Shown one piece after another: positions 36,710-42,784 of a stretch of DNA of 43,851 nucleotides. The translations under genes and the position numbers were made by a program. The notes under the pieces are model-generated. The model worked only from the letters and a program-made list of their open reading frames with translations. It did not search any database and had not been told where the DNA came from. Source of the stretch: Candidatus Rariloculus versatilis (GTDB lineage: Bacteria > Pseudomonadota > Gammaproteobacteria > Steroidobacterales > Rariloculaceae). Location: assembly GCA_028278665.1 (NCBI GenBank), contig JAQAJI010000036.1, positions 3,246 to 47,096 of the forward strand, given 5' to 3'. Positions within the stretch are counted from its first letter, which is position 1; every line of letters begins with the position of its first letter.

Positions 36710-37624
36710 TCAGCGCCCGATCTCGCTGCACGAGGCTCCGAGAGCAAAGCAACTGTAACAGCGGTGGTGACGCATGTAGATGCGCTCGCCCATGCTCTCA
36801 GTCAGCGTGTCGCCAAGGTCGTAGGAGTCGTCATCGTCGACGAGCGTGCAGGCATAGACTCGCATCGCGCCGTTGATCCGAACGACCATTTTCGAAAAAG
36901 CGCACATGAATTCCCGGCGGCTCTCTTCGCTGTGGAATGCGGTCATGCAATGCTCGGTGACGTGTGGCACCGGCGGGTGCGAACCCGGAGTCAGAAAATC
37001 CGGGAAGCGGACTATCGTCGTGTCCCGGGGCCGTCCATGCCGGGCGAAAAGCAAGCGAAATTGCGACTCGGTCCGTTGCCCGTCCTCGCCCGCATCGATC
37101 TGCCGCGCTACGGAGACGTGAAAGCCGCGCTCGTGCAGCGCCGCCAGTGCCGAGAACGCCTTGTCAAAATTTCCCGCACCACGGCCTGCGTCGTGGCGGC
37201 TCGGATCCGGATAGTCGATGCTGATCCTGAACGAGACCGGATGCTCCTGGATGCGCAGAGTCTCGATCTGGGCCAGACGCCTGAGCACGGGATCGGTGCC
37301 GTTGGTCAGCACGAGGCAGGGCCTGAAGCTCGAGGCATAGCGAAGTATGTTGACGAAGTCCCTGACGATGAAGGGTTCGCCGCCCGTGAACGAAAACTGC
37401 TCGACGCCGAGCGCGACGGCTTCGTCGATAAACGGCTTCGCGTCCTCGAGACTGATCCGGTCAAGCCGGCCGTCGCCGGGTTTTGAGCCCTCGAGGCAAA
37501 ACGGACACGCGAGATTGCATGCCGTCCCGGTATGAAACCACAGCTCCCTGAGCGCGTACGGATCGATATAGCCGCACGGTTTGCGAGTCTCGGTGAGCGG
37601 AAACTCCTGCAGGTTGGCGTTCAT
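36710..37624 (-). CDS. Radical SAM protein, last gene of the transferase/VTT operon
   Basis: A 304-residue radical SAM enzyme. The cluster motif is TACNLACPFCLEGSKPG (C36, C40, C43; CxxxCxxC), followed by VEQFSFTGGEPFIVRDFV, the SAM-binding GGEP. The TIM barrel continues with CLVLTNGTDP and VSFRISIDYPDPSRHDAG. A C-terminal Cys set (C259 in YACTLVDDDD; C289, C292 and C299 in CYSCFALGASC) could hold an auxiliary iron-sulfur cluster, as in SPASM/Twitch enzymes. It lacks the CNQxCxHCHVDAGP look of ArsS, the radical SAM enzyme of arsenosugar synthesis, which is usually reported beside these transferases. Its ATG overlaps the glycosyltransferase stop by 4 bases. Substrate unknown. Confidence 0.85.
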   Translation of the reverse strand: MNANLQEFPLTETRKPCGYIDPYALRELWFHTGTACNLACPFCLEGSKPGDGRLDRISLEDAKPFIDEAVALGVEQFSFTGGEPFIVRDFVNILRYASSFRPCLVLTNGTDPVLRRLAQIETLRIQEHPVSFRISIDYPDPSRHDAGRGAGNFDKAFSALAALHERGFHVSVARQIDAGEDGQRTESQFRLLFARHGRPRDTTIVRFPDFLTPGSHPPVPHVTEHCMTAFHSEESRREFMCAFSKMVVRINGAMRVYACTLVDDDDSYDLGDTLTESMGERIYMRHHRCYSCFALGASCSEIGR

Positions 37625-38388
37625 GTATTGAGCGTCGTGTCCGGCTCGTCTCGATCGCTTTGAGAGTCCGGCGCGCCGCCGTCCGCCGCGATGTCCGGCC
37701 TGCGCCCGCCGTGATATGCGCCCGCCAGTTTCTCGGGCGAAACGCCTAGCATATTACACATCGCGAGCCAGCGGTTGCGCCAGGTTCGCGACCACCAGCC
37801 GTCGCGCTCCCAGCGCCGCGTCGCGACGCGCACGGCCGGCGCCAGCGCGCGGAACTTTCCACGCCGCCTTGACCGTCTCACGAGCCGCACCTCCTCAAAC
37901 AGCGGCTGGTGAGGAAACCCGCCGCAGTGGAGGTAGACTTCGCGCCGCAGGAAGATGCCCTGATCCCCGTAGGGGATGCCGCCGAGCGCCACTCGCAGGG
38001 ACACGAACCGCTCGAGCAGACGCTTGTACCAGGTCCGCTGCCCCTGAAACGCGAAGCGAAAGCAGCCGCCCTCGGCGCCGAACGCGAGCGCCGACCCGAT
38101 CGCCTCCAGACCGTCGTGCGGAGGCTCGACGTCGGCATGCAGGAACCACAGCACACTCGAGCGTGCCTGCCTCGCGCCGCAATCGAGCTGGGCGCCCCGG
38201 TTGGCGTGCGTTTCGACGAGGCGGCAGCCGTGTTCGCGGCAAAGATCCGTGAGCTCTGGATCGGAGCGACCCGCGACGACGATGATCTCTTCCGGCCGAC
38301 CCTGCCAGCCCTCGATCCCGCCCAGAAGTTGCGCAAGGGCTTCCACGTCGCCGAGCACCGGCACGACGACCGCGACGTCGTGTTTCAC
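37621..38388 (-). CDS. Glycosyltransferase family 2 protein, TIGR04283-like
   Basis: A 255-residue GT-A glycosyltransferase. The GTG at 38388 is used because it overlaps the flavoprotein stop (GTGA) and starts right at the domain (VKHDVAVVVPVLGDVEAL). Motifs are GRPEEIIVVAGRSDPE, THANRGAQLDCGARQA, SVLWFLHADVEPPHDG (the D-x-D-like metal site HAD), GGCFRFAF, GGIPYGDQGIFLRREVYLHCGGFP and FEEVRLVRRSRRRGKFRAL. This order matches the TIGR04283 'transferase 2, rSAM/selenodomain-associated' family, also named for arsenosugar biosynthesis. The partner TIGR04282-like gene is in the same operon at 41644. The C-tail (RRPDIAADGG onward) is likely disordered. Confidence 0.85.
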   Translation of the reverse strand: MKHDVAVVVPVLGDVEALAQLLGGIEGWQGRPEEIIVVAGRSDPELTDLCREHGCRLVETHANRGAQLDCGARQARSSVLWFLHADVEPPHDGLEAIGSALAFGAEGGCFRFAFQGQRTWYKRLLERFVSLRVALGGIPYGDQGIFLRREVYLHCGGFPHQPLFEEVRLVRRSRRRGKFRALAPAVRVATRRWERDGWWSRTWRNRWLAMCNMLGVSPEKLAGAYHGGRRPDIAADGGAPDSQSDRDEPDTTLNT

Positions 38389-39851
38389 GGGCGCACGTTC
38401 CACTTGAGCCAGGCGCCGAGCAGCCGTCGTGCGGACGGCGTCAATCGCTTGCGGTTGAACTCGTCCGCCATGCGGCGCAGGTACTGTGCGCGGGTCGGAT
38501 AAGGCAGAACCGTCTTTGCGAGACTGCCGAGGCGAAGACCGTTCGTCATCGCGATGCAAACGGCCGCAAGCTGCTCGCCCGCGTCCCGTCCCACGATCGT
38601 CGCCCCGAGAATCCGGCCGTCGTTCGGCGCAGCCAGAACTTCGGCGAAACCTTGCTCGTCGCCCTGCGCCCTGCCGCGGTCGAGATCGCCGAAGGCCACG
38701 CGCCAGGTATCGAATGGGCTGCCGTCGCGTTCAAGCTCGGTTTTCGACCGGCCGACCTGCGCGACCTCGGGGTCGGTATAGGTGCAGTGCGGCATGTTGA
38801 GCCTGCGTGTCGTGGCCGTCGGAAAAAAGAGCGCGTTCTGCACGACGATGCGCGCATGGGCGTCGGCATTGTGCGTGAACTGAAGCCGCGCGCAGACGTC
38901 GCCGGCCGCATAGATTCGCCGGTTCGTCGTGCGCAGGTAATCGTCGACAATGATGAGGCCGCCCGGGCCGGTCTGTACACCGGCACGCTCAAGATCAAGG
39001 TCGTCGCTGTTTGCCCGTCTCCCGGCGGCGACGAGCACCTCGTCCGCCCTGGTCTGGATACCGTTCGCGGTCACGACGACTTCCCTGCCGCGCCGCTCGA
39101 CGCTCGCCACCGACGCGTTCAGGTGCAACCGGACTCCACTCGATTGGAGCGCTTTGGAAACGATCTCGCCGGCTTCGCGACTCTCCAGCGCAAGCACCCG
39201 GTCGGCCATCTCGAACAGGTGCACTTCGACATTCATGCGCGAGAACGCCTGGGCGAGTTCGCTGCCGATCGGACCGCCGCCGACGATCGCAAGCCGCCCT
39301 GGCCGTTCGCTGAGATCGAACACGGTCTCGTTGGTCAGCGGCCGGGCCTCGGCCAGCCCCGGAATCGGCGGCACCGCCGCGCGTGCACCGGAGGCAATGA
39401 CGATCCGCCGCGCCGACAGGCTCACGCCTTCGACCTGCACCGTATCGCCGCCGAGGAACCGCGCCGCACCGAGAAAAACATCCACGCCCGCGGCGACGTA
39501 GCGCTCTACCGAATCGTGCTCTGCGATCCGGGCGCGCACCTCGCGCAGCCATGCGAACGCTGCGTCGAAACAGTCGGTATGAGCCCGCTTCGCGGTGAAC
39601 TCGAGCAGCGCCTTCGACGGGACGCAACCCACATTGAGGCAATCGCCGCCCATCGCCTCCCGCTCCACCAGCGCGACCCGCGCTCCGAGACCTGCGGCCG
39701 CGATTGCGGTAACGAGGCCTGCCGGTCCCGCACCGATCACGATGAGGTGGTACCTGCGAGCCGGGAGGGGATTGCGGTAGTCGGCCGGATACACCAGGCG
39801 CCGCCAGCGCTGGTCCTGGTCCGATCCGGGATAAGTGACGGGGAGCGTCAT
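38385..39851 (-). CDS. Mercuric-reductase-like FAD/NAD(P) disulfide oxidoreductase
   Basis: A 488-residue flavoprotein of the pyridine nucleotide-disulfide oxidoreductase class I. FAD site HLIVIGAGPAGLVTAIAAAGLGARVALVE; redox-active disulfide GGDCLNVGCVPSK (C71, C76); NAD(P) site RLAIVGGGPIGSELAQAF; second FAD motif RRIYAAGDVCARLQFTHNADAHA; dimer domain CTYTDPEVAQVG. It lacks the heavy-metal domain and terminal Cys pair of true MerA. At the C-terminus, where glutathione reductases have the catalytic His in HPT-x-x-E, it has VLPYPTRAQ, so the acid-base His is absent. Such proteins are often encoded beside, or fused to, TVP38/VTT membrane proteins, exactly as here (7-base gap). Its substrate is unknown. 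Confidence 0.88.
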   Translation of the reverse strand: MTLPVTYPGSDQDQRWRRLVYPADYRNPLPARRYHLIVIGAGPAGLVTAIAAAGLGARVALVEREAMGGDCLNVGCVPSKALLEFTAKRAHTDCFDAAFAWLREVRARIAEHDSVERYVAAGVDVFLGAARFLGGDTVQVEGVSLSARRIVIASGARAAVPPIPGLAEARPLTNETVFDLSERPGRLAIVGGGPIGSELAQAFSRMNVEVHLFEMADRVLALESREAGEIVSKALQSSGVRLHLNASVASVERRGREVVVTANGIQTRADEVLVAAGRRANSDDLDLERAGVQTGPGGLIIVDDYLRTTNRRIYAAGDVCARLQFTHNADAHARIVVQNALFFPTATTRRLNMPHCTYTDPEVAQVGRSKTELERDGSPFDTWRVAFGDLDRGRAQGDEQGFAEVLAAPNDGRILGATIVGRDAGEQLAAVCIAMTNGLRLGSLAKTVLPYPTRAQYLRRMADEFNRKRLTPSARRLLGAWLKWNVRP

Positions 39852-39858
39852 GGCTGCG

Positions 39859-40575
39859 TTATCCGTTCCCGAAATCGTCCGCCGCCCGGCGCTGCAGGTG
39901 AGTGCCGAGCGTGCGCGTCGCCTTGCGCGTGATCAACACGACCAGAAGCAGCGTCGCCAGCAGACCCCCAAGCAGCAACGCGAGTCCGAGCCACCCGCCG
40001 TCGAATTCGCCCCCGCCGAGGGCGGCAAGGTCCTGGGCGACGGTACCGAAGTAGACATACAGCACCGTTCCGGGAAACATGCCGATCCACGACGCGAAGA
40101 AGTAGTCCCGGAAGCGCACGGAGGTTACGCCGAGGCCGTAGTTCAGGAGGTTGAACGGAAACAGCGGCGACAGGCGCGCGAGCAGCACGATCATAAAGCC
40201 CTGCTCGCCCACCGCACTGTCGAGTGCGCCGAAGCGCGGCAGGCGGTCGATCCGCCGTTCCGCCCAGGTCCTGACGAAAAACCGCCCGATCAGGAAAGCG
40301 CTGGACGCTCCAAGCACGCTGCCTGCCGAAACGAGCGCGACGCCGAGCGGCAATCCGAACACGAAACCCGCCACGAGCGTGATCAGCGATCCCGGAATCA
40401 GCAGCACCGTGGCCAGGATGTAGGCGCCAACGTAGACGGCCCACGCCAGCCCGCGGTTCGTCTGGATCCAGACGACCGCGCCACCGAGCCAGTCGAGAAC
40501 GGGCGCAAACGCGACGGCGACGCCAAGCACCACGAGCAGCACGACGAACACGAGCGGCTTGATGGAGTGGTTCAT
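39859..40575 (-). CDS. TVP38/TMEM64 (VTT domain) family membrane protein, copy 2
   Basis: A 238-residue polytopic inner-membrane protein of the DedA/VTT superfamily. It starts MNHSIKPLVFVVLLVV. The VTT core reads ILATVLLIPGSLITLVAGFVFG, AGSVLGASSAFLIGRFF, RFGALDSAVGEQGFMIVLLARLSPLFPFNLLNYGLGVTSVRFRDYF (with breaks; conserved R-L-S-P, F-x-x-x-N-Y-x-x-G) and LYVYFGTV. Members are thought to move or flip lipids or act with redox partners; the transported compound here is unknown. It is closely related to the protein at 40880-41647, sharing KPLVFVVLL, GVT-x-VRFRDY and LYVYFG, so the pair is a tandem duplication. The flavoprotein start follows 7 bases after its stop. Confidence 0.88.
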   Translation of the reverse strand: MNHSIKPLVFVVLLVVLGVAVAFAPVLDWLGGAVVWIQTNRGLAWAVYVGAYILATVLLIPGSLITLVAGFVFGLPLGVALVSAGSVLGASSAFLIGRFFVRTWAERRIDRLPRFGALDSAVGEQGFMIVLLARLSPLFPFNLLNYGLGVTSVRFRDYFFASWIGMFPGTVLYVYFGTVAQDLAALGGGEFDGGWLGLALLLGGLLATLLLVVLITRKATRTLGTHLQRRAADDFGNG

Positions 40576-40610
40576 GATGTCGTGCCGGGCAGTTGGCAAT
40601 GTGACGCGCT

Positions 40611-40869
40611 AGCCCGCAAATCCCACCAAGGGCCGCGATGATCGCGCAGGCCCGATCATATGTATCTGGGGGCACAGGCGCGTGCTCGCGACCGGAACCA
40701 TAGCGGGTCTATGGTGGAGGGAGCATGCGCGCGCCTGTGCGCAAAAGACAAGCGAGGGCGTGGCCAGCGCAAGCTGTCACCGGCACGATGCCCCTGATGG
40801 TCTCGCAAGTTCCTGAAATTCATCCTTAATGCTCCATGGCAAGGCGCGGCTTGGTGAGATTTGCGGGCT
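40611..40869. repeat. 259-bp element with 20-bp inverted ends between VTT genes
   Basis: Left arm AGCCCGCAAATCCCACCAAG (40611-40630) and right arm at 40850-40869 are inverted repeats with one mismatch. With a 2-base gap the similarity continues inward through GCCGCG. No open frame with protein features lies inside. The size, inverted ends and lack of coding capacity suggest a MITE-like element or a large palindromic unit. Confidence 0.55.
40672..40740. other. Long nested hairpin
   Basis: Outer stem GCACAGGCG (40672-40680) with CGCCTGTGC (40732-40740), middle stem TGCTC (40683-40687) with GAGCA (40721-40725), inner stem CCATAG (40698-40703) with CTATGG (40709-40714). It may attenuate or protect the operon transcript. 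Confidence 0.55.
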
Positions 40870-40879
40870 TCGCGGTCGC

Positions 40880-41647
40880 TCAGGTGTTTGGACTGTCCGC
40901 GCCGTCAGCAGGTTCAGTCTCGCTGCCGGCGGGCGTGTCGCGCTCGAGATGAGCGCCGAGCACGCGGCTTGCCATGCGGCCGATGACGACGACGAGCAAA
41001 ACTGTCGCCGCGAGCCCGCCTACCGCAAGCGCAAGACCGTAAGGCCCGCGGTCGAATTCTCCTTCCGTCAGGGTCAGGAGATCCTGCGCGAGGCTGCCGA
41101 AATATACGTAAAGCGCGAGCGCCGGCAGCAAGCCGATCCAGGTCGCGAGAACGTAGTCGCGAAAACGCACGCCCGTCACGCCGAACGCGTAGTTGAGCAG
41201 AAAGAACGGAAAAAACGGCGACAGGCGCGACAGAAACACGATCTTGAGTCCGTCCGTTCTGACGGCGCTGTCCAGCGCGTCGAATGACGGCAATCTCTCG
41301 ATGCGCCGCTTGACCCAGTCGCGCGCAAGGAAGCGGCCGACGAGGAAAGCGCCAGCCGCGCCGAGCAGGCTGCCGAGCGACGCAGGCACGATGCCGAGCG
41401 GAAACCCGAATACGAAGCCGCCGACGAGCGTCGGCAGGGTTGCGGGAACCAGGAGCACCGTGGCGGCGGCAAACGCAAGCACAAACACGGCCCACGACAA
41501 CGTCCGATGAGCCTCGATCCACGCGACGCCCGCCGCGAGCCAGTCTCGGATCGGCAGCCCCGCGGATCCGGTCGCGACAATGACGAGCGTGGCGCCGACC
41601 ACCGCAAGCAGCACGACGAACACGAGCGGCTTGTAAGAGTGCTTCAC
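40880..41647 (-). CDS. TVP38/TMEM64 (VTT domain) family membrane protein, copy 1
   Basis: A 255-residue polytopic membrane protein. The GTG at 41647 begins MKHSYKPLVFVVLLAVVGA and overlaps the transferase stop (GTGA). VTT landmarks: FAAATVLLVPATLPTLVGGFVFGF, LGSLLGAAGAFLVGRFLARDW, LDSAVRTDGLKIVFLSRLSPFFPFF, LLNYAFGVTGVRFRDYVLATW and LALYVYFGSLAQDLL. The sequence follows copy 2 along its whole length, but has an added C-terminal tail rich in Glu, Asp and Pro (DTPAGSETEPADGADSP). Role as for copy 2. The two may form a heteromer or serve different substrates. Confidence 0.88.
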   Translation of the reverse strand: MKHSYKPLVFVVLLAVVGATLVIVATGSAGLPIRDWLAAGVAWIEAHRTLSWAVFVLAFAAATVLLVPATLPTLVGGFVFGFPLGIVPASLGSLLGAAGAFLVGRFLARDWVKRRIERLPSFDALDSAVRTDGLKIVFLSRLSPFFPFFLLNYAFGVTGVRFRDYVLATWIGLLPALALYVYFGSLAQDLLTLTEGEFDRGPYGLALAVGGLAATVLLVVVIGRMASRVLGAHLERDTPAGSETEPADGADSPNT

Positions 41648-42342
41648 AACTGCCGTTTGAAACGTTGGCCGTCGTTCGCAAGCCAGGCGCCCAGCGCCCT
41701 GCGCGCCGGCCGAGGATCGCCCGGCACGGTACGCCCGAATGCATCCAGATCCCCGAGCGTGTCGATGTCAGCCAGCGCCGCAAGACGGGCCGTTTTCCAG
41801 CCGTGGTCGGTACACGAGCGCTCGAGTTCCGCCATGAGGTTCGCGCTGCTCCACGCGAGATCGCCGAGATCCGGCCATTTCCGCCGCGCCCCCATCAGTA
41901 CGACGCCGCCGTCGTGCGCCGGACCGAAAACCGCGTCGTGATTGTCGAGCGCATCCGCGGCCTCATTGAGGTAGCGTGCGTGAAGTTCCGGACAGTCGAT
42001 GCCGATGAAGATCTGCCGTTGGAAGCCCCGCGAGCGAAGCACGCCGTTGACGTGATTGATCCGCTCACCGAGATTGCTGCCACGTTGCAGCACGACCGCG
42101 TCGCAGCGGTCCATCCGTTCGGCCGCCCATTCGCCGTCGGCCTCTCCCGCCGGCGCGAAGCACACCGGCCCGGGCCAGGCGGCCACATCCTCGAGCGCGC
42201 AACTCCACAGGTGCTCGGCAACAATCGACGCGAGCGGTCCGATCGCGGCCGCCAGGCGCCGCTTCGACCGCCCGGGCGCCTTGAACATCAACACGAGGCA
42301 GCTCTCGGGCGTGCGCCTGGCGTTTCGATTGTCCATGACCAT
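41644..42342 (-). CDS. TIGR04282-like transferase (nucleotidyl/glycosyl transferase fold), first gene of the operon
   Basis: About 232 residues. Motifs: CLVLMFKAPGRSKRRLAAAIGP (the K-x-P-x-x-x-x-x-K-x-R-L start of these transferases), VCFAPAGE, LQRGSNLGERINHV (usually Q-x-x-G-D-L-G-x-R), IFIGIDCPELHARYLNEAADAL (G-(S/T)-D-x-P, here G-I-D-C-P), DAVFGPAHDGGVVLMGARR and DIDTLGDLDAF. This order is that of TIGR04282, 'transferase 1, rSAM/selenodomain-associated', also named for arsenosugar biosynthesis. The start is uncertain: ATG 42342 (MVMDNRN), 42336 (MDNRN) or 42402. It overlaps the next gene by 4 bases and is divergent from the ferredoxin gene. Confidence 0.82.
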   Translation of the reverse strand: MVMDNRNARRTPESCLVLMFKAPGRSKRRLAAAIGPLASIVAEHLWSCALEDVAAWPGPVCFAPAGEADGEWAAERMDRCDAVVLQRGSNLGERINHVNGVLRSRGFQRQIFIGIDCPELHARYLNEAADALDNHDAVFGPAHDGGVVLMGARRKWPDLGDLAWSSANLMAELERSCTDHGWKTARLAALADIDTLGDLDAFGRTVPGDPRPARRALGAWLANDGQRFKRQL

Positions 42343-42466: not shown

Positions 42467-42784
42467 ATGGTCAAGTTGGTGGTAACAAATCGCGTCGGGG
42501 CGACCGTCGAGGTCGACGCCTTCACGGGGATTTCGATGATGGAGAACATCCGCGAACTCGACGACAGCGTCGATGCGATCTGCGGCGGCATGTGCTCCTG
42601 CGCGACCTGTCACGTCTTCATCGAACCGTCCTTGTGGGACAGCCTGCCCGAGCGCGGCTACGAGGAACTGATGCTGCTTAAGGATCTGGAATCGTTCGAC
42701 CCGGAGCGCTCCCGCTTGAGCTGCCAGATCGAAGTGACCGGGGATCACGACGGCATCGCGCTGAAAGTGGGTCCCGAAGAGTGA
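42467..42784 (+). CDS. [2Fe-2S] ferredoxin, adrenodoxin type
   Basis: A 105-residue electron carrier. MVKLVVTNRVGATVEVDAFTGISMMENIRE resembles the beta-grasp start of this type. Cluster ligands are C39, C45, C48 (CGGMCSCATCHVF, C-x5-C-x2-C) and C86 (RLSCQIEV). The extra Cys43 sits within the loop. Adrenodoxin-type ferredoxins serve P450s, Rieske-type oxygenases or iron-sulfur assembly. The gene is divergent from the transferase/radical SAM operon, with 124 bases between, where TATAGT (42423-42428) may be its -10 box. Whether it feeds that operon's enzymes is speculative. Confidence 0.92.
   Translation: MVKLVVTNRVGATVEVDAFTGISMMENIRELDDSVDAICGGMCSCATCHVFIEPSLWDSLPERGYEELMLLKDLESFDPERSRLSCQIEVTGDHDGIALKVGPEE

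What the first reader, a model, noticed from the sequence alone, without database searches (positions are those of the whole stretch)
36710..42342. Six-gene operon coupling two transferases, two VTT membrane proteins, a MerA-like flavoprotein and a radical SAM enzyme
In transcription order: TIGR04282-like transferase, VTT copy 1, VTT copy 2, mercuric-reductase-like flavoprotein, TIGR04283-like glycosyltransferase, radical SAM protein. Four junctions overlap by 4 bases or have a 7-base gap, so it is one functional unit. TIGR04282 and TIGR04283 are named for rSAM/selenodomain or arsenosugar clusters, and VTT plus FAD oxidoreductase are known neighbours and fusions. However, no ArsM-like arsenite methyltransferase is seen and the radical SAM protein is not ArsS-like. 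The set could build a different sugar- or lipid-linked small molecule, with export or lipid transfer through the VTT proteins.
Basis: partly seen in the sequence, partly recalled or inferred. Interest (0 to 1): 0.78.

Follow-up and report, generated by a model that had tools for sequence, protein, structure and literature searches.

The report
Arsenosugar operon with non-ArsS radical-SAM enzyme
Six co-directional bacterial genes look like an arsenic-sugar pathway in which an unnamed radical-SAM enzyme family sits where the known enzyme ArsS normally sits, which would make it a probable new kind of enzyme that bonds carbon to arsenic, to be tested at the bench.

Summary
The six-gene operon is real: three 4-base overlaps, one 7-base gap, and one 304-base gap that holds an interspersed repeat missing from the closest relative. 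Its radical SAM protein (36710-37624) is not ArsS (TIGR04167: 38 bits, cut-off 300) and fits no named family. I compared 87 family loci from several phyla (52-86% identity to the window). The protein recurs beside TIGR04282, TIGR04283, VTT and MerA-like genes. In 30 loci it lies beside a long ArsM-type arsenite methyltransferase. Locus L024 has the window's gene order with ArsM added. Canonical ArsS loci carry the same partners, including a VTT-MerA fusion and the same ArsM. ArsS and this protein exclude each other: 0 of 53 family genomes have ArsS. Of 194 TIGR04283 genomes in the class, 176 have ArsS, 6 have this protein and none has both. ArsM lineages switch repeatedly between the two. Best reading: an arsenosugar-type pathway in which a separate SPASM/twitch-type radical SAM family takes the ArsS step. 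The window's genome (92% complete) has neither ArsM nor ArsS, and many relatives also lack ArsM, so the arsenic substrate here is probably imported dimethylarsinite or unmethylated arsenite. No chemistry has been shown. Novelty: new variant of a known kind.

The parts
41644..42342 (-). TIGR04282-like (DUF2064, CofC-like fold) putative nucleotidyl/glycosyl transferase
   Evidence: TIGR04282 E 6.7e-34, 117 bits (curated cut-off 134, not reached); PF09837 76 bits over cut-off; PDB 3cgx 'putative nucleotide-diphospho-sugar transferase' E 4e-16
40880..41647 (-). VTT1, DedA/TVP38-type membrane protein, GTG start overlapping the T4282 stop by 4 bases
   Evidence: PF09335 E 2.5e-27; 59% identical to VTT2
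40576..40879 (.). gap between VTT1 and VTT2 carrying an interspersed repeat with 20-nt inverted ends (arms 40611-40630 and 40850-40869)
   Evidence: 37 matches in the own genome including the window copy; gap about 50 bases in L018
39859..40575 (-). VTT2, DedA/TVP38-type membrane protein
   Evidence: PF09335 E 8e-29; paralogue of VTT1
38385..39851 (-). MerA-like FAD/NAD(P) disulfide oxidoreductase (CX4C active site GGDCLNVGCVPSK; no C-terminal Cys pair)
   Evidence: PF07992 and PF02852; NF004991 559.6 bits against cut-off 620, MerA TIGR02053 345.6 against 454.45; best PDB hit mercuric reductase 5x1y; fused to VTT in many relatives
37621..38388 (-). TIGR04283 family glycosyltransferase (GTG start, 4-base overlap with the flavoprotein gene)
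   Evidence: TIGR04283 196.7 bits over cut-off 182; the only TIGR04283 match in the genome
36710..37624 (-). radical SAM protein with SPASM/twitch-like C-terminal Cys domain, unnamed family, proposed ArsS substitute
   Evidence: PF04055 68 bits; no NCBIfam family over cut-off; nine family-wide conserved Cys (36, 40, 43, 226, 241, 259, 289, 292, 299); model pLDDT 88.7, best PDB BlsE Z 20.3 and SkfB Z 19.9

Best explanation
The operon encodes an arsenosugar-type pathway in which an unnamed radical SAM/SPASM-like family takes the place of ArsS. Proposed steps. (1) The radical SAM enzyme cleaves SAM and adds the 5'-deoxyadenosyl radical to a trivalent arsenical, giving a 5'-deoxy-5'-arsinoyl-adenosine; inferred from its taking the ArsS slot. 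(2) Adenine is removed, in several relatives probably by an adjacent MTA-phosphorylase-like enzyme, leaving an arseno-ribose-1-phosphate; inferred. (3) The TIGR04282 protein activates the arseno-ribose with a nucleotide, and the TIGR04283 glycosyltransferase moves it to an acceptor such as glycerol or a glycerolipid; inferred from families and from T4282-T4283 fusions. (4) The membrane-bound VTT/MerA-like pair supplies reducing power that keeps arsenic trivalent, and/or moves the arsenical or its lipid; inferred, with the pairing itself shown by fusions. In relatives with ArsM the substrate would be dimethylarsinite made by ArsM. In this genome, where no ArsM is found, it would be imported methylated arsenic or arsenite itself. 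What is shown here is the conservation of the set, the shared partners, and the mutual exclusion with ArsS. The chemistry is inferred.
For: (a) Neighbourhoods: of 87 family loci, 44 have T4282, 37 T4283, 46 a MerA-like gene, 41 VTT, 30 the ArsM-type gene, 11 an MTAP-like gene and 3 ArsC within 6 kb (gene identities). L024 is T4282-VTT-MerA-T4283-ArsM-rSAM, the window's order plus ArsM. (b) The ArsM of these loci has four invariant Cys (C24, C52, C147, C197), spaced close to those of known ArsM (prior knowledge), and matches NF008823 at E 4e-55, though below that model's cut-off. (c) Canonical ArsS loci have the same partners: ArsM at about 60% identity, VTT-MerA fusion, T4283, T4282. (d) Exclusion: 0 of 53 family genomes have ArsS. 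In 369 class genomes, 194 have TIGR04283: 176 with ArsS, 6 with this family, 0 with both (Fisher 2.7e-7); among ArsS-less genomes TIGR04283 is in 6 of 7 with this family against 12 of 180 without it (2e-6); 29 of 31 genomes with the long ArsM have ArsS or this family. (e) ArsM lineages switch partner (ArsS or this family) at least 3, most simply 7-8, times. (f) Fusions: T4282-ArsM (L077), T4282-T4283 (L011, L029, L031, L085), VTT-MerA (many). (g) Both radical SAM families end in a similar Cys pattern, MC-x14/17-C ... C-Y-x-C ... S-C.
Against: No ArsM in this genome (92% complete) nor in about half of family genomes (28 of 53 without the long ArsM; a few of these have another ArsM). ArsM-less genomes are, however, also common among ArsS genomes: only 60 of 182 had a match in a shallower scan. 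TIGR04283 proteins of this family's clusters form a clade nearly separate from those of ArsS clusters (2 changes), so the product may differ. TIGR04282 scores below its curated cut-off. MTAP and ArsC are not in this operon. The ArsM-type proteins score below the curated cut-offs of the ArsM models. Exclusion counts are inflated by relatedness, and only 7 sampled class genomes carry the family. No enzyme of this family has been assayed.
Confidence: 0.7

Rival explanations
1. The radical SAM enzyme acts on inorganic arsenite (or a thiol adduct of it), as ArsL does with another SAM fragment, so the ArsM-less operons make an unmethylated arseno-sugar; ArsM, where present, methylates before or after.
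For: No ArsM in this genome nor in isolate genomes such as Motiliproteus, Neptuniibacter and Marinobacterium. T4283 of these clusters is a clade nearly of its own. A radical SAM enzyme acting on arsenite is known (ArsL, PMC8552651).
Against: ArsM presence and absence are scattered over the rSAM tree (12 changes, at least 8), which does not look like a substrate split between two enzyme clades. ArsL is a different, longer protein (428 aa with its cluster Cys at 194-201; PMC8552651).
Confidence: 0.15
2. The set is not about arsenic at all: the radical SAM enzyme adenosylates another atom (for instance selenium or sulfur) or a sugar precursor, and the transferases and VTT proteins build a lipid-linked glycoside; ArsM is an occasional passenger.
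For: T4282 and T4283 were first named for selenium-linked clusters (prior knowledge); a DedA protein has been linked to selenite resistance (title of a reference listed in PMC10127716); the own genome has tRNA-Sec; ArsM is absent from this genome.
Against: ArsM adjacency in 30 loci from several phyla, ArsM fusion to T4282, ArsC in 3 clusters, shared partners with ArsS clusters, exclusion with ArsS.
Confidence: 0.1
3. The radical SAM protein is a peptide-modifying SPASM enzyme that happens to lie in the operon.
For: Best structural matches include SkfB and SuiB, which are peptide maturases.
Against: The best match by Z is BlsE, a small-molecule enzyme, tied with SkfB. Gene order is conserved with transferases and ArsM; no precursor peptide gene is recognised in the operon (gaps of 7 bases or overlaps).
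Confidence: 0.03

Closest known systems
Arsenosugar biosynthesis cluster with ArsM and ArsS (TIGR04167); ArsS adenosylation of arsenic is cited in PMC12159101 (Cheng et al. 2021)
   Same: Same partner set: ArsM (about 60% identity in relatives), TIGR04283, TIGR04282, VTT-MerA fusion; radical SAM enzyme with SPASM-like C-terminal Cys; mutually exclusive occurrence
   Different: Radical SAM protein is outside TIGR04167 (38 bits against 300), aligned to ArsS over the radical SAM core only at about 20% identity; its T4283 is a near-separate clade; no ArsM in this genome
ArsL of arsinothricin biosynthesis (PMC8552651)
   Same: Radical SAM enzyme that forms a C-As bond, encoded next to an ArsM
   Different: 428 aa with cluster Cys at 194-201 and only three conserved Cys; [quoted passage not shown] partners ArsQ and ArsM, not T4282/T4283/VTT
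Rv1681 family radical SAM protein (NF049973)
   Same: Best-scoring named family (105 bits over residues 27-206)
   Different: Far below its cut-off of 380; similarity is in the radical SAM core only
COG0398 DedA proteins fused to pyridine nucleotide-disulfide oxidoreductase (PMC10127716)
   Same: VTT + FAD oxidoreductase as adjacent genes or one 710-757 aa protein in relatives
   Different: The passages read from that paper do not connect the fusion with arsenic; here it is a frequent member of both ArsS and non-ArsS arsenosugar-type clusters

Membership tests
ArsS (TIGR04167) | score over the curated cut-off of 300 bits | tested here: not met
   38 bits, E 1e-9, core only; whole genome has no match over the cut-off
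ArsS (TIGR04167) | adenosylation of a trivalent methylarsenical | not testable with these tools
   needs an enzyme assay
ArsS (TIGR04167) | encoded among ArsM, TIGR04282 and TIGR04283 genes | tested here: inconclusive
   T4282-like and T4283 in the window; ArsM adjacent in 30 of 87 family loci, but not in this genome
Radical SAM superfamily (PF04055) | domain over cut-off and CX3CX2C | tested here: met
   68.3 bits over 29.5; C36, C40, C43 invariant in 44 sequences
SPASM/twitch radical SAM enzymes | C-terminal extra cluster Cys and overall fold | tested here: inconclusive
   six further conserved Cys; fold matches BlsE, SkfB, SuiB and MoaA; cluster content not testable; no SPASM model reached its cut-off
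TIGR04283 glycosyltransferase | score over the curated cut-off of 182 | tested here: met
   196.7 bits
TIGR04282 | score over the curated cut-off of 134 | tested here: not met
   117.3 bits; PF09837 is met
Mercuric reductase MerA (TIGR02053) | score over cut-off 454.45 and C-terminal Cys pair | tested here: not met
   345.6 bits; protein ends ...WLKWNVRP without Cys pair
VTT/DedA (PF09335) | domain over cut-off | tested here: met
   101 and 96 bits over 33.9
ArsL (arsinothricin) | about 428 aa, CX3CX2C at 194-201 | tested here: not met
   304 aa with CX3CX2C at 36-43; ArsL figures from PMC8552651
Rv1681 family (NF049973) | score over cut-off 380 | tested here: not met
   105.4 bits

The most novel reading that the evidence does not exclude
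A third family of C-As bond-forming radical SAM enzymes, not descended from ArsS or ArsL, which in the ArsM-less operons (the window's included) adenosylates arsenite or environmental methylarsenite and so makes arseno-sugars or arseno-lipids not yet described from these bacteria. At least one member may use selenocysteine at its last conserved Cys position (L076).
Probability: 0.2. Interest if true: 0.82.

Novelty: new variant of a known kind. Interest (0 to 1): 0.64.

Why it matters
Only two radical SAM families are reported to make C-As bonds in the open literature read here (ArsS and ArsL, PMC12159101), and who makes arsenosugars outside algae and cyanobacteria is little known. If this family is an ArsS substitute, arsenosugar-type chemistry extends to Marinobacter, Nitrosomonas, Methylotenera, Colwellia, Planctomycetota and Desulfuromonadales members in which an ArsS search finds nothing. 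It would also give the VTT/MerA-like fusion protein a pathway. The claim can be tested with one enzyme assay.

Tried and rejected
ArsM or ArsS elsewhere in the genome: not found. ArsL as the identity: rejected on length and Cys position (PMC8552651). Rv1681 family: far below cut-off. A solved ArsS structure for comparison: none found by profile search; folding ArsS here was left out because its loci came from the genome search, which the folding tool does not accept. A Rfam SECIS match after the TGA of L076: none; the hairpin there is no better than shuffles allow (z -1.4). Promoter consensus: none found. Papers describing a non-ArsS radical SAM in arsenosugar clusters: none found in the open library, which does not hold most subscription papers. 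L017/G202 (35% identity, very long branch) was dropped as a non-member, and counts were redone without it.
Full report
OBSERVATION. Junctions, in transcription order: T4282/VTT1 4-base overlap (GTGA); VTT1/VTT2 304-base gap; VTT2/MerA-like 7-base gap; MerA-like/T4283 4-base overlap (T4283 starts at GTG 38388); T4283/rSAM 4-base overlap. The large gap carries 20-nt inverted ends, and the sequence between the genes has 37 matches in the genome, the window copy included. The closest relative L018 has the same ten genes in the same order (TlpA, ferredoxin, T4282, VTT1, VTT2, MerA-like, T4283, rSAM, DUF1820, PurL; 79-91% identity) with only about 50 bases at that place. The gap is therefore most simply a repeat element inserted into a compact operon.

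FAMILIES. T4283 passes its curated cut-off (196.7 against 182 bits). T4282 is below its own (117 against 134) but passes PF09837 and matches PDB 3cgx. Both membrane proteins pass PF09335 and are 59% identical to each other. The flavoprotein is a disulfide oxidoreductase with the CX4C site but no C-terminal Cys pair, and fails MerA's cut-off. The radical SAM protein passes PF04055 but no NCBIfam model; ArsS TIGR04167 scores 38 bits against 300. It has nine family-wide conserved Cys. Its model (pLDDT 88.7) matches BlsE (Z 20.3) and SkfB (Z 19.9) over most of the chain. Profile comparison with ArsS aligns only the radical SAM core (20% identity), yet both families end in a similar Cys pattern.

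NEIGHBOURHOODS. A scan of species genomes gave 80 relatives, and 7 more came from genome searches. Counting the window and leaving out one non-member, 87 loci were compared. Within 6 kb of the radical SAM gene, 44 have T4282, 37 T4283, 46 a MerA-like gene, 41 VTT, 30 an ArsM-type gene, 11 an MTAP-like gene and 3 ArsC; 74 have at least one of the core partners, and several of the rest lie near contig ends. The 350-aa ArsM-type protein matches arsenite methyltransferase NF008823 at E 4e-55, below that model's cut-off, and has invariant C24, C52, C147 and C197. In L024 the order is T4282-VTT-MerA-T4283-ArsM-rSAM, which is the window's operon with ArsM added and one VTT gene instead of two. Fusions link the set: VTT-MerA in many, T4282-T4283 in L011, L029, L031 and L085, T4282-ArsM in L077.

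COMPARISON WITH ArsS. Twelve stretches around canonical ArsS or TIGR04283 genes were read. They hold the same partners: ArsM at about 60% identity to the ArsM of this family's loci, VTT-MerA fusions, T4283 and T4282. In 369 class genomes ArsS is in 182 and TIGR04283 in 194; 176 of the latter have ArsS, 6 have this radical SAM family, none has both (Fisher 2.7e-7). Among ArsS-less genomes TIGR04283 is in 6 of 7 with this family against 12 of 180 without it. Of 31 genomes with the long ArsM, 29 have ArsS or this family. In 53 genomes with this family, ArsS is in none, TIGR04283 in 48 and the long ArsM in 25 (not counting G202). Relatedness inflates these numbers. The ArsM tree needs 7-8 switches between the two partners, at least 3 forced by well-supported branches. 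The T4283 tree splits nearly cleanly by partner (2 changes), and the MerA-like tree needs 5.

THE MISSING ArsM. The window's genome (92% complete) has no ArsM or ArsS. ArsM presence is scattered over the radical SAM tree (12 changes, at least 8), so the enzyme probably does the same job with and without a resident ArsM. Many ArsS genomes also lack a detectable ArsM (60 of 182 had a match in a shallower scan). Imported methylated arsenic or direct use of arsenite are the two simplest sources; which one is right is not known.

MECHANISM. Shown here: conserved gene set, shared partners with ArsS clusters, mutual exclusion, partner switching of ArsM, fusions. Inferred: adenosyl transfer to trivalent arsenic (from the ArsS slot; ArsS chemistry is cited in PMC12159101); adenine removal by the MTAP-like neighbour seen in 11 relatives; nucleotide activation by T4282; glycosyl transfer by T4283; reduction and membrane work by MerA-like and VTT proteins. 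COG0398 DedA-oxidoreductase fusions are known (PMC10127716); the passages read make no link to arsenic.

SELENIUM SIDE NOTE. In L076 the last conserved Cys position (C299) is an in-frame TGA, followed by four codons and a stop. That genome has a tRNA-Sec. ArsS itself is known to have selenoprotein members (its model is named rSAM_SeCys). A SECIS element was not recognised, so this remains one suggestive case.

VERDICT. A real, conserved operon; most likely an arsenosugar-type pathway with a non-ArsS radical SAM enzyme. New variant of a known kind. Confidence in the reading about 0.7; chemistry untested.

Noticed in passing
window 40606-40875: Interspersed repeat with 20-nt inverted ends (95% complementary) inside the operon; its sequence has 37 matches across the genome, the window copy included, and is absent from the relative L018, so it looks like a small mobile or repeat element.
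   Followed up: partly
window 42467-42784: Small 2Fe-2S ferredoxin gene divergent from the operon, kept beside it in L018 and L019; a possible electron donor for the radical SAM enzyme.
   Followed up: partly
L076 9865-9867: In-frame TGA at the last conserved Cys of the radical SAM family, with tRNA-Sec in the same genome: possible selenocysteine.
   Followed up: partly
L143 1501-1593 (G000 contig 62): The window's own genome encodes a selenocysteine tRNA.
   Followed up: partly
L015, L044, L077: Colwellia-type clusters add a DUF547 protein, an MTAP-like gene, a different GT2 glycosyltransferase and in L044 and L077 an ArsC gene, an expanded version of the pathway.
   Followed up: no
L048, L054, L057, L058, L063, L065-L067 and other Marinobacteraceae loci: Only the VTT-MerA fusion stays beside the radical SAM gene, followed by a sodium:solute symporter and a fixed set of genes; TIGR04283 lies elsewhere in the genome.
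   Followed up: partly
L061, L073, L089, L090: In Desulfuromonadales and a Lentisphaeria the radical SAM gene follows a ferredoxin-NADP reductase-like gene (component 54), a possible reductase partner.
   Followed up: no
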